Shown: positions 22,683 through 28,653 of the stretch, piece by piece
Numbering within the stretch: position 1 is the stretch's first letter
How the letters are laid out: each line of letters begins with the position of its first letter
Source of the DNA: Bergeyella zoohelcum ATCC 43767
GTDB lineage: Bacteria; Bacteroidota; Bacteroidia; Flavobacteriales; Weeksellaceae
Assembly (NCBI RefSeq): GCF_000301075.1
Contig: NZ_JH932293.1
Coordinates: 1,331,082-1,395,081 of the forward strand
DNA length: 64,000 bases
Direction: 5' to 3'
The notes under the pieces: model-generated
What the model was told of the DNA's origin: nothing
The model's database searches: none
Seen by the model: only the letters and a program-made list of their open reading frames with translations
Program-made: the position numbers and the translations under genes

Positions 22683-24041
22683 ATGGAAAACAAAAAAGAT
22701 TTCTTTTTAGAGTGCTATCAATTGGGCATCATAAAATTCGGAAAGTTTACTTTAAAATCAGGTATAGAGAGTCCTTTTTATGTGGATTTAAGGCCACTGG
22801 CATCAGATGCTAAAATTCTAAAAAAATTAGGTCATTACTTGCTTCAGTTGGTTTCTAATGCACAGCCAGAGCTTATTTGTGGTGTGCCTTACGCAGCACT
22901 TCCTATGGCTACAGCGATGGCTTTGGAAAGCGAAATACCATTGATTATTAAAAGAAAAGAAGCCAAAAGTTATGGAACCAAAAAACTCATTGAGGGAATT
23001 TTTGAGAAGGGGCAGTCTTGCCTTGTGGTGGAGGATGTTATCACAAGTGGGAAATCACTTTTAGAGACCATTCCAGAGATAGAAAACGAAGGTATAAAAG
23101 TTTCAGAAATAGTAGTGGTTTTAGATCGTGAGCAGGGAGGTAAAGAACTTTTGGAAGAAAAGGGCTATCAGGTAAGGACGCTATTTACTATTCGTGAGGC
23201 ATGCCAAATCCTTGTGGAAGCTGGAAAAATCACTGAGGAAGAGCAGCAGAGGATAGAGGATTTTGTAAAAGGAAATGCCATTACTTTTGAGAAGCCTAAA
23301 AGAAAATCGTACAAAGAGAAATTGGCAATTCATTCCCATAGTAAGGCACAGAAACTACTGCAGTTGGCAATGGAAAAAGAGTCTAATCTCATTGCCTCAG
23401 CAGATGTGGTTACTACTGCAGAGCTTTTGGATTTTGCAGAAAAGGTAGGTCCACACATTGTAGCACTGAAAACCCATGCGGATATCATTACTGATTTTGA
23501 TTATGAAAAAACCATTGTTCCGCTTTTAGATATTGCACAGAAACATCGTTTCCTTTTGATGGAAGATAGAAAATTTGCAGACATCGGAAGTACGCAGGAG
23601 CTGCAGTATAGTTATGGTATTCACAGGATTTCCAGTTGGGCAGATCTTATTACCTCTCAGGTAATTGGTGGAGCTAAATCTTTGGATTTTTTCCTTAATT
23701 CAGGGGTTATTAGTATTATTGGAATGTCTTCTGAAGGTACACTGACAGATGCCAATTACCGTGCTGAAGCCATTAAAGTAGCTCAGGCACATCCTAATGT
23801 TATTGGAGGAGTGTCCCAAGATACTTTGCCAGAGGATTTACTTCTCTTTACGCCTGGAGTAAATATTGATATACAAGCCGATGGAAAAGGACAGCAATAC
23901 AATAGCCCTGAGGTGGTTTTTTCCAAATTAGGAACGGATTTTATCATTGTAGGGAGAGGAATCTATAAAGCAGAAGATGCAGAACAGGCCGCACTCCAAT
24001 ATAAAATAGCAGGCTGGAATGCATATTTAGAAAATCTATAG
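22683..24041 (+). CDS. pyrEF: Fused orotate phosphoribosyltransferase / OMP decarboxylase (UMP synthase)
   Basis: A 452-residue bifunctional protein for the last two steps of UMP synthesis. Residues about 1-200 are an orotate phosphoribosyltransferase with the PRPP motif LVVEDVITSGKSL. Residues about 215-452 are an OMP decarboxylase of the eukaryotic class: ALKTHADIITDF, LLMEDRKFADIGST (catalytic lysine and aspartates), and GQQYNSPEVVFSKLG followed by IIVGRGI. Domain order (PyrE then PyrF) and these motifs are those of animal and plant UMP synthase rather than of E. coli PyrF. No stop or frame change separates the halves, so it is a true fusion. carB follows 1.4 kb downstream. Confidence 0.93.
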   Translation: MENKKDFFLECYQLGIIKFGKFTLKSGIESPFYVDLRPLASDAKILKKLGHYLLQLVSNAQPELICGVPYAALPMATAMALESEIPLIIKRKEAKSYGTKKLIEGIFEKGQSCLVVEDVITSGKSLLETIPEIENEGIKVSEIVVVLDREQGGKELLEEKGYQVRTLFTIREACQILVEAGKITEEEQQRIEDFVKGNAITFEKPKRKSYKEKLAIHSHSKAQKLLQLAMEKESNLIASADVVTTAELLDFAEKVGPHIVALKTHADIITDFDYEKTIVPLLDIAQKHRFLLMEDRKFADIGSTQELQYSYGIHRISSWADLITSQVIGGAKSLDFFLNSGVISIIGMSSEGTLTDANYRAEAIKVAQAHPNVIGGVSQDTLPEDLLLFTPGVNIDIQADGKGQQYNSPEVVFSKLGTDFIIVGRGIYKAEDAEQAALQYKIAGWNAYLENL

Positions 24042-24336: not shown

Positions 24337-25431
24337 ATGAAGTTAATATATCATAGGACAAATTTCAGGGCGGAGTATTCCCCATTTGATGTTGAATTAA
24401 TAACACTAGCCAATCAACAAAATTTGTGCTTGGTATCTCCTTATATCGGACTCGATTATTTGAAAAGACTCATACAACTTTCTAAATCTTGGAGGCTCAT
24501 CACAGATTTTGAAGAGTGGATTATTTCTCATCAGAGAAAAGAACAACGAGAAAACATCATTAATTTTATAAATGAAAACCCAGAAAAAATAAAGCATATT
24601 TCTGATATTCATGCGAAAGTTTTAATTTCAGAGCATTCTGCTTTTTTAGGGTCTGCTAATTTTACTGATAAAGGAATTTGCCAACGAACGGAAATGTCTG
24701 TTTCATTTTCAGAGGTAGAAAAAGTGCAAGAAATAAAATCTTGGTTTGAATCATTGTGGGAAGTAGCAATAAATTTCACAGAAGAGCAGTTGTCTGATTT
24801 TGTAAAGAAAAACGAAAATACCAATCATAAACCTAGAATTAAAAAACTGAAAAGTCCATCAAAAAAAGTAATGAAAAGAGCAAGTTTGGTAGATATTGGT
24901 ACATTCTTTAAGACGGACAAGGACTATCAGAGTGAATTAGTGAAAGCCATTAAGAAAATTAAGAAAGATAAAGAATGGCTGAATCGTTTTTTTGATTTAA
25001 TCAAAGAGCTTTTAACCGATTTAAACATAGGAGAGGAATCGCCTAAAATCACGATGTCTGTAACCAAAGACCTACGAATGCCCATTTCTATTGGACAACG
25101 CTATGTAATTAGAGCTAAATCGCAGCAGAATAAGGTAGGGTTTATCTTACCTTTGGAACTCGAAGAAATGATTTCTAATAATCCTATTGCTAAAATTGAC
25201 GATAATTACTTCTATGACAAAAAGAAAAATAAAGAAGCACTTTGGGTGAATTTTGATAATAATATTGTTTTTTCCAATGACCATTTTTTATTTGAACAGT
25301 GGAAAAAAGCAGCAAAAGTAGAACTCGATAGAACGAACTATTCGGGATATCGAAGAGCTCATAATCCTCTCTATTATAAATTAGTGATGGATTTAGAGTA
25401 TAGGAACAAAATTTTAGATTTGTGTGATTGA
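24337..25431 (+). CDS. Phospholipase D-like domain protein
   Basis: A 364-residue protein with one HKD-type motif: HAKVLISEHSAFLGSANFTDKG (about residues 91-112), preceded by SPYIGLDYLKRLI as in PLD-like nucleases such as the NgoFVII and DNA-repair groups. The last ~200 residues are charged and carry no motif I recognise (conserved-looking RVQ..GQRYVIRAKSQQNK and a final YKLVMDLEYRNKILDL). One HKD motif per chain suggests a dimeric nuclease or phosphatase rather than a lipase; there is no signal peptide. It sits between two pyrimidine genes, 31 bp ahead of carB, which looks like a later insertion. Confidence 0.7.
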   Translation: MKLIYHRTNFRAEYSPFDVELITLANQQNLCLVSPYIGLDYLKRLIQLSKSWRLITDFEEWIISHQRKEQRENIINFINENPEKIKHISDIHAKVLISEHSAFLGSANFTDKGICQRTEMSVSFSEVEKVQEIKSWFESLWEVAINFTEEQLSDFVKKNENTNHKPRIKKLKSPSKKVMKRASLVDIGTFFKTDKDYQSELVKAIKKIKKDKEWLNRFFDLIKELLTDLNIGEESPKITMSVTKDLRMPISIGQRYVIRAKSQQNKVGFILPLELEEMISNNPIAKIDDNYFYDKKKNKEALWVNFDNNIVFSNDHFLFEQWKKAAKVELDRTNYSGYRRAHNPLYYKLVMDLEYRNKILDLCD

Positions 25432-25461: not shown

Positions 25462-28400
25462 ATGAAACGACAAGATATAAAAACCATTTTAGTAATCGGT
25501 TCCGGGCCTATTATCATTGGTCAAGCAGCCGAGTTCGATTATTCGGGAACGCAGGCGTGCCTCTCTTTGAAAGAAGAAGGTTACCGTGTGATTCTCATCA
25601 ATTCCAATCCTGCCACTATTATGACCGATGTGGAAATTGCCGATAAAGTCTATATCGAACCGATTTCCTTGGAGTTCGTGAGCCATATCATTAGAAAAGA
25701 AAGACCGGATGCTCTATTGCCAACTTTGGGCGGACAAACAGGACTGAATATGGCAGTGGAGCTCGAGAAATCAGGCATCTTGGAAGAGTGTAAAGTAGAG
25801 GTGTTAGGAACCAAACTTTCCGCTATTAATCGTGCTGAGGATAGAGATTTGTTCCGTGAATTGATGAACGAGCTTGGCGAGCCTGTACCAGAATCGGATA
25901 TTGTGAACACAGTGGAAGGTGCGTTGGAATTTGCCCAAAACATCGGTTATCCAGTGATTGTTCGTCCTGCTTTTACGATGGGCGGAACGGGTGGTGGTAT
26001 CGCTGCCAATGAGGAGGAACTCCGAGAAATTGCAGAACTCGGTCTTAAGCATAGTCCCGTTACCCAGTGTTTGATAGAAAAATCCATCGCTGGATACAAG
26101 GAAATAGAATACGAAGTGATGCGTGATGCTAATGATAATGCCATCGTGGTTTGTAATATGGAAAATATAGACCCTGTGGGGGTTCACACAGGAGACTCTA
26201 TTGTGGTGGCACCTTCGCAAACGCTTTCCGATAGAGAATACCAAATGCTGAGAAATGCCTCTCTAAAAATCATTAGAGCTTTAGGTATTGAGGGGGGATG
26301 TAATGTACAATTGGCACTAGACCCGCATTCTTTTAATTATTATGTAATTGAGGTAAATCCAAGGGTTTCCCGCTCATCGGCATTAGCGAGTAAAGCTACG
26401 GGCTATCCGATTGCGAAGATTGCAGCGAAGATTGCCGTTGGACTTACTTTGGACGAGATTATGAACCCCGTAACGGGCAAGACTTACGCTTGTTTCGAAC
26501 CTGCTTTAGACTATGTGGTTACCAAATTCCCTCGCTTCCCGTTTGATAAATTTGAAACTGCTGACCGCCGACTTTCCACGCAGATGAAAGCCACAGGAGA
26601 GGTGATGGCGATTGGTAGAAACTTTGAAGAGTCTTTACAAAAGGCGATTCGTTCTTTGGAAACAGGCATTCGCCATATCGGTTTGAAGACCAAAGATGCC
26701 GAGGCACTGACTGCAGAGGATATTGAGCGAAGAATTAAGGTGTGCGATGACGAGCGTTTGTTCATCATTGGCGATGCCCTTAGAAGAGGTTATGATTGGG
26801 AGCAAATCGTAGAATGGAGCAAAATAGATAAGTTTTTCATTTGGAAAATTAAGAAACTGATTGATTTTGAAAAAACTTTGTCCAACTTATCAAACCTTTC
26901 AAATGCTGAACAAATTGATATAGTGAGAGAAGCCAAAAAATTAGGCTTTGCTGATGTCAATATCGCTCATCTTTGGGGTGTTACCCAGCGTGAGGTATTT
27001 AATTTCAGAAAAGAAAACGGCATTATGCCAGTGTATAAAATGGTAGATACCTGTGCAGCGGAATTTGAGAGCGAGACGCCTTATTTCTATGGAACTTACG
27101 AGGAGGAAAACGAAAGCATCGTAACGGAAAAAGAGAAGGTCATCGTGCTGGGTTCTGGACCTATCCGAATTGGGCAAGGCGTGGAATTCGATTATGCTAC
27201 CGTGCATTCCGTTTGGGCAATTAAGGAAATGGGCTACGAGGCGATTATCATCAATAATAATCCTGAAACCGTTTCTACAGATTTTTCCATTTCAGATAAA
27301 CTCTATTTTGAACCACTTACCGAGGAAGATGTGATGAATATCATTGAGCTGGAGAAACCTAAAGGAGTAGTGGTGCAGTTCGGGGGACAAACTGCCATTA
27401 ACCTTGCTGATAAATTGGCAGCACACGGCGTACAGATTTTGGGAACTTCTTTGGAAGATTTGGACAGAGCCGAAAACCGCGACAAGTTCGAAAAGGCACT
27501 CCAAGAGCTAGGTATTCCTCAGCCAAAAGGAAAAACTTCCACTTCTAAGGAAGAAGCGATAAAAATTGCCAATGAAATCGGGTATCCTGTGCTGGTGCGT
27601 CCGTCTTATGTCTTGGGTGGCCGTGCGATGGAGATAGTGTATAACGAAAAAGAACTCGCCCACTATATGGAGCACGCCGTAGAGGCAAGTCCTGAACATC
27701 CTGTCCTTATCGACCGCTATATGCTGGGGAAAGAGGTGGAAATTGATGCCATTTGCGATGGCGAAACGGTGATTATCCCAGGGATTATGGAGCATATAGA
27801 GCGTGCAGGGGTGCATTCTGGAGACTCTATCGCGGTATATCCGCCTCAAAATATCAGTGAGAAAGAGGTACAAACTTTGGTAGATTATACCCAAAGATTA
27901 GCAAAGGGACTGAATGTCATCGGTTTGATGAATATCCAATATGTCTTATTTGAAGGCAATGTCTATGTGATTGAGGTAAATCCTCGTTCGTCTAGAACTG
28001 TTCCTTTCTTATCAAAAATCACGAATGTTCCGATGGCGAACCTCGCTACTAAAGCGATTTTAGGCAAAAAACTAAAAGACCTCGGTTATGAAAATGGTTT
28101 GGTTCCGAACAAGAAAGGAGTATTTGTAAAAGTGCCAGTATTTTCCTTCTCCAAACTCACCAAGGTAGATATTTCCCTCGGCCCTGAAATGAAATCCACA
28201 GGGGAAGTAATGGGGAAAGACACCACTTTGGAAAAGGCGTTGTACAAGGGTCTCATCGCTGCTGGAATGAAAGTACCTACTCACGGAGCCATCCTCTTTA
28301 CGGTTGCTGATAAACACAAGGACGAAGCCACCGCTTTAGCAAAACGATTCCACGAAATAGGTTTTAGAATTTGGGCAACCGAAGGTACCGCGAAACATTT

Positions 28401-28653
28401 CGAAGCGAATGGTGTACCGTGTAAAATCGGATACAAAATAGGGGAGGAAATCAACCTGATAGACCTTATCCAAAAAGGCAAAGTGCAGTATGTGGTGAAT
28501 ACCACTACCAAGGGAAAACAAGCGGAACGCGACGGCTTCCAAATCCGCCGTATGTCCGTAGAAAATGGCGTACCTTGTCTCACCGCTATGGATACCGTAG
28601 AAGCCGTACTGAAAGTCATCGAAAGTATGAGCTTTAAAATGGAGGTGATGTAA
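25462..28653 (+). CDS. carB: Carbamoyl-phosphate synthase large subunit
   Basis: A 1063-residue protein that makes carbamoyl phosphate for pyrimidines and arginine, using ammonia from CarA. Two ATP-grasp halves are evident: the first starts [20 protein letters not shown], the second [18 protein letters not shown] near residue 560; each has its VNPR metal motif ([15 protein letters not shown] and [15 protein letters not shown]). The C-terminal ~140 residues are the MGS-like allosteric domain. carA is not in the window. The gene is visibly richer in G+C than its neighbours, which may only reflect codon bias of a highly conserved gene. Confidence 0.97.

What the first reader, a model, noticed from the sequence alone, without database searches (positions are those of the whole stretch)
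22683..24041. Eukaryote-like fused UMP synthase in a bacterium
Seen: one uninterrupted 452-residue frame with an OPRTase half and an OMP-decarboxylase half. The second half carries motifs (ALKTHADI, EDRKFADIGST, GQQYNSP, IIVGRGI) that I know from animal and plant UMP synthase and that bacterial PyrF of the E. coli type lacks. Inference: an ancient exchange between Bacteroidota and eukaryotes, or a shared archaic form retained here. The direction cannot be judged from one sequence.
Basis: partly seen in the sequence, partly recalled or inferred. Interest (0 to 1): 0.6.

Follow-up and report, generated by a model that had tools for sequence, protein, structure and literature searches.

The report
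Eukaryote-type fused UMP synthase in bacteria
This bacterium makes the pyrimidine UMP with one two-part enzyme of the kind found in animals and plants instead of the two separate enzymes most bacteria use; its whole family shares the trait, which makes it a useful clue to how enzymes moved between bacteria and eukaryotes, though the enzyme itself is ordinary.

Summary
One open frame (22683-24041, 452 aa) holds an OPRTase half and an OMP-decarboxylase half. Both halves have their nearest solved relatives in human UMP synthase, and in trees both group with eukaryotic UMPS rather than with the PyrE and PyrF of other Bacteroidota. The genome has no separate pyrE or pyrF.

The fusion is not an oddity of one genome. 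It is in 118 of 120 sampled genomes of the family (112 of 112 good ones; Weeksellaceae by named members), in two single-genome families of the same order, and in a family of 0.6-Mb genomes that I infer to be Blattabacterium. A 42%-identical fused copy lies on Saprospira plasmids. It is missing from the other sampled Bacteroidota, which have unrelated PyrF.

A shared origin of the fused gene in these bacteria and in animals and plants is well supported. The direction is not: eukaryotes form one clade, the bacteria are unresolved around it (AU p = 0.40), and I could not sample protists or other bacterial phyla. Function (orotate to OMP to UMP) follows from conserved catalytic residues and the lack of any alternative. 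I file it as a new member of a known kind.

The parts
22683..24041 (+). umps (pyrE/F): bifunctional orotate phosphoribosyltransferase - orotidine-5'-phosphate decarboxylase, 452 aa
22683..23282 (+). OPRT half (residues 1-200); PRPP-binding loop VVEDVITSG and Lys/Arg active-site residues conserved
23283..23312 (+). linker between the halves (about residues 201-210), shorter than in human UMPS
   Evidence: alignment
23313..24038 (+). OMP decarboxylase half (residues 211-452); K263, D295, K297, D300 align with yeast K59, D91, K93, D96
25462..28653 (+). carB, carbamoyl-phosphate synthase large subunit (first step of the same pathway); the adjacency is not conserved in relatives

Best explanation
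The gene encodes a working bifunctional UMP synthase. The N-terminal OPRT converts orotate and PRPP to OMP, and the C-terminal OMP decarboxylase converts OMP to UMP. It is this organism's only enzyme for each step. The gene entered the common ancestor of one branch of Flavobacteriales (Weeksellaceae, the 0.6-Mb-genome family inferred to be Blattabacteriaceae, and two small families) already fused. It replaced the ancestral separate pyrE and pyrF and was then inherited vertically. It shares a single fused ancestor with the OPRT-OMPDC synthase of animals and plants, so the gene crossed between bacteria and eukaryotes at least once. The direction, and whether an unsampled third lineage was the donor, are open. 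Shown: fusion, homology of both halves, conserved active sites, family-wide presence, absence of alternatives. Inferred: catalytic activity, single acquisition, replacement.
For: PDB search: OMPDC half 191 bits to human UMPS, also plant (8u0z) and yeast, with no bacterial or archaeal OMPDC at E <= 1e-3; OPRT half 177 bits to human, 125 to Leishmania and 75 or less to all others. OMPDC tree: fused bacteria and eukaryotes lie together, away from PyrF of other Bacteroidota, E. coli and archaea (dividing branch 76/96). OPRT tree: fused bacteria plus animal/plant OPRT together 91/88. Concatenated: 100/100. Same domain order in all 20. Catalytic residues invariant: D, K, D, K, D in OMPDC and K, R, K, K, [ED], D in OPRT. 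No second OMPdecase; the other PRT-family genes include HPRT, PRPP synthetase, APT and UPP. Present in 112 of 112 good family genomes, absent from all other families in the 395-genome phylum sample. Base composition native: GC 0.388, GC3 0.316, like neighbouring cysM.
Against: No activity measured. Support for the OMPDC junction is moderate (76/96), and the outgroups sit on very long branches. Saprospira and G513 (f63) are deep and unstable, so one acquisition versus several is not settled.
Confidence: 0.8

Rival explanations
1. Independent fusion: a eukaryote-type OMPDC and a bacterial OPRT were joined within Bacteroidota, and the shared domain order with animals and plants is coincidence.
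For: Fusions of these two enzymes arose several times: the order is OMPDC-OPRT in oomycetes, diatoms and kinetoplastids (PMC2705460), and NCBIfam holds a bacterial OMPDC-OPRT model, NF004034.
Against: The OPRT half also groups with animal/plant UMPS OPRT (91/88, 177 bits against 75 or less for other bacteria) and not with PyrE of other Bacteroidota.
Confidence: 0.08
2. Archaic form retained: the fused enzyme was ancestral to Bacteroidota, or older, and was lost everywhere except this branch and Saprospira.
For: Two separate places in the phylum carry it, and the Saprospira sequence is as divergent from the window protein as the human one is.
Against: All the rest of the sampled phylum, including Flavobacteriaceae of the same order, lacks it, and the PyrF sampled there is of another type, which would require very many parallel losses and replacements. 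In Saprospira the gene is on a plasmid.
Confidence: 0.1
3. Contamination or misassembly with eukaryotic DNA.
For: None found.
Against: Family-wide presence in complete genomes, native composition, no introns, and 76% identity to an independent Bergeyella record.
Confidence: 0.005

Closest known systems
Eukaryotic UMP synthase (UMPS; human, plant)
   Same: Domain order OPRT-OMPDC, catalytic residues, motifs; 40-42% identity in the OPRT half and 44-45% in the OMPDC half
   Different: Bacterial host, shorter linker, about 450 aa against 480 in human
Fused UMPS of Saprospira grandis plasmids (WP_015695551.1, annotated only as pyrF)
   Same: Fused OPRT-OMPDC, 467 aa, 42% identity
   Different: Plasmid-borne, beside purine and pyrimidine genes; as distant from the window protein as human UMPS is
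OMPDC-OPRT fusion, NCBIfam NF004034 (PRK05500), and kinetoplastid UMPS
   Same: Same two activities in one chain; OPRT halves related (162 bits)
   Different: Reverse domain order; the kinetoplastid OMPDC is of a different type that groups with ordinary PyrF
NCBIfam NF010382 (PRK13809), stand-alone OPRT
   Same: Closest curated model to the OPRT half: 202 bits, cut-off 208
   Different: 210-aa stand-alone enzyme with no OMPDC
Ordinary Bacteroidota PyrE and PyrF
   Same: Same reactions
   Different: Separate genes; PyrF does not match the OMPDC half at E 1e-5

Membership tests
Eukaryotic-type UMP synthase (OPRT-OMPDC) | Both domains in one chain, OPRT first | tested here: met
Eukaryotic-type UMP synthase (OPRT-OMPDC) | OMPDC half of the eukaryotic (URA3/UMPS) type | tested here: met
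Eukaryotic-type UMP synthase (OPRT-OMPDC) | OPRT half related to the animal/plant UMPS OPRT | tested here: met
   (91/88); moderate support
Eukaryotic-type UMP synthase (OPRT-OMPDC) | Catalytic residues of both active sites | tested here: met
Eukaryotic-type UMP synthase (OPRT-OMPDC) | Both enzymatic activities | not testable with these tools
   needs an assay
OMPDC-OPRT fusion (NF004034 / PRK05500) | OMPDC first, OPRT second; score over cut-off 656 | tested here: not met
   order reversed; 159-162 bits, OPRT part only
Ordinary bacterial PyrF (E. coli type NF001273, or the type of other Bacteroidota) | Score over cut-off; grouping with PyrF in a tree | tested here: not met
   29 bits against 193; separate in the tree

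The most novel reading that the evidence does not exclude
The fused UMPS of animals and plants descends from a bacterial fused gene of this lineage or its relatives (bacteria to eukaryote), so that part of the eukaryotic pyrimidine pathway came from Bacteroidota or a common bacterial donor.
Probability: 0.25. Interest if true: 0.7.

Novelty: new member of a known kind. Interest (0 to 1): 0.42.

Why it matters
The origin of the eukaryotic UMP synthase fusion is an open question, and a whole bacterial family carrying the same fusion in the same order gives it an outside comparison. It also means an essential pyrimidine step in a family that includes animal pathogens (Riemerella, Bergeyella) is run by a human-like enzyme. 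That is a caution for anyone who treats PyrE or PyrF as a selective drug target there. Current records name it only as pyrF, at least in Saprospira, and no curated NCBIfam model for this domain order matched it.

Tried and rejected
Two viral-contig scans found no relatives. Phage records hold only partial matches to the OPRT half. The first OPRT tree was spoiled by E. coli and Francisella on very long branches and was rebuilt without them. Structure prediction from a shallow 7-sequence alignment gave mean pLDDT 58.6 and a poor OMPDC half, so no fold search was made. Sampling another phylum through a plasmid locus is not possible with the tool. Ten paper searches found no description of this bacterial enzyme in the held library; most subscription papers are not held. 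Conserved gene neighbourhood with carB was tested and rejected.

Full report
Observation. The ORF at 22683-24041 (+) is 452 codons with one start and one stop. Pfam gives Pribosyltran (44-155) and OMPdecase (234-440, E 1.8e-42). Their exact spelling is partly private to this protein. The looser forms occur in animal, plant and yeast OMPDC and in none of the E. coli, Coxiella, archaeal, Leishmania or ten Bacteroidota PyrF sequences checked.

Nearest relatives. Against all solved structures the OMPDC half matches human UMPS (191 bits), the UMPS chain 8u0z (a plant enzyme by its 491-bit match to the Arabidopsis sequence I recalled) and yeast Ura3 (179 bits). No bacterial or archaeal OMPDC reaches E 1e-3. 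The OPRT half matches human OPRT at 177 bits, Leishmania at 125 and everything else at 75 or less. Identity to human is 40% (OPRT) and 44% (OMPDC).

Alternatives in the genome. A search of the whole genome finds a single place matching the protein and a single OMPdecase. Six other phosphoribosyltransferase-family genes are present. Four are hypoxanthine PRT, PRPP synthetase, adenine PRT and uracil PRT by NCBIfam. The other two I read as PurF (500 aa) and a ComF-like protein, by length and sequence only. None is a PyrE. The genome is 99.94% complete.

Distribution. In the family, 118 of 120 sampled genomes carry the protein (112 of 112 good ones); the two without it are 89% and 56% complete. 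Named members are Bergeyella, Kaistella, Frigoriflavimonas, Riemerella and Amniculibacterium, which identifies the family as Weeksellaceae (for Bergeyella). In the order it is also in f57 (G507), f63 (G513) and a family of 0.6-Mb genomes, f69, which from genome size and position I infer to be Blattabacteriaceae. All those fetched are fused, 449-465 aa. The f57 and f63 families hold one genome each. Flavobacteriaceae and all other families in the 395-genome phylum and class samples lack it, and the PyrF that was sampled there is of another type. Outside this branch, Saprospira plasmids carry a fused 467-aa version at 42% identity.

Trees. OMPDC: the 20 fused bacterial sequences and five eukaryotic ones are separated from all other OMPDCs by a long branch (76/96); eukaryotes form a clade (94/95) and the bacteria are not resolved around it. 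OPRT, after dropping rows that attracted each other: fused bacteria plus animal/plant OPRT together (91/88), with a group of PyrE from other Bacteroidota as the next neighbour. Concatenated: fused bacteria plus eukaryotes 100/100 (the outgroup there has OPRT only), eukaryotes 100/99; holding the bacteria together is not rejected (AU p 0.40). So the fused gene very probably had one ancestor shared by these bacteria and the eukaryotes, and the data cannot say which side had it first. Caveats: five eukaryotes only. Yeast Ura3, E. coli PyrE and PyrF and the M. thermautotrophicus OMPDC were recalled and then checked identical to PDB chains. Human was checked by alignment over most of its length. 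Arabidopsis and Drosophila are from memory and unchecked, apart from the Arabidopsis OMPDC match.

Mechanism. Yeast OMPDC catalytic residues K59, D91, K93 and D96 align with K263, D295, K297 and D300 and are invariant in all 20 fused proteins. The OPRT residues K25, R91, K92, K95, E117, D118 and R149 align with the E. coli enzyme (E117 replaces E. coli D124, as in human). With no other enzyme for either step, the protein most likely makes UMP from orotate in two steps on one chain. That is inference from established enzymology; no assay was possible. In f69 members the phosphate-loop residues aligned with yeast Q215 and R235 are changed (N or L, and K), a relaxed feature within those reduced genomes.

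Context. carB lies 1.4 kb downstream, but none of the sampled relatives keeps that neighbour, so no pyr operon is claimed. Base composition of the gene is that of its neighbours, so any transfer is old.

Known or not. Fused OPRT-OMPDC in plants and animals, and the reverse order in oomycetes, diatoms and kinetoplastids, are described (PMC2705460; PMC7052976). I found no paper in the held library on the bacterial OPRT-OMPDC enzyme, but subscription papers are missing and database annotation may already note it. The OPRT half scores 202 bits against NF010382 (cut-off 208), a stand-alone OPRT model. From memory that model is chlamydial, and a review notes that most Chlamydia keep pyrE (PMC10242142). 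This is a lead toward a third lineage, not a test.

Verdict. A real, family-wide, eukaryote-type UMP synthase: new member of a known kind, with an interesting but unresolved transfer history.

Noticed in passing
L100, L101, L141 (Saprospira plasmids NC_016936.1, NZ_CP116809.1): About 54-kb plasmids carry fused UMPS and dihydroorotate oxidase together with guaA, and in the Lewin strain also guaB, purQ, purH and AIR-synthase-related genes: housekeeping nucleotide synthesis on a plasmid.
   Followed up: partly
L100:1437-2181: In the Lewin strain the last 96 residues of UMPS are repeated as a separate 96-aa ORF overlapping a KilA-N gene.
   Followed up: no
window 24337-25431 (+): Orphan 364-aa protein with a PLD-like domain (PF13091), weakly like DrmC/DpdK/ZacB defence proteins, lying between umps and carB; not found next to umps in relatives.
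   Followed up: partly
L083, L084, L086 (0.6-Mb genomes, f69): OMPDC phosphate-loop residues (GQQ, VGRG) are changed to N/L and K in members of this reduced-genome family while the catalytic Lys/Asp residues stay.
   Followed up: no
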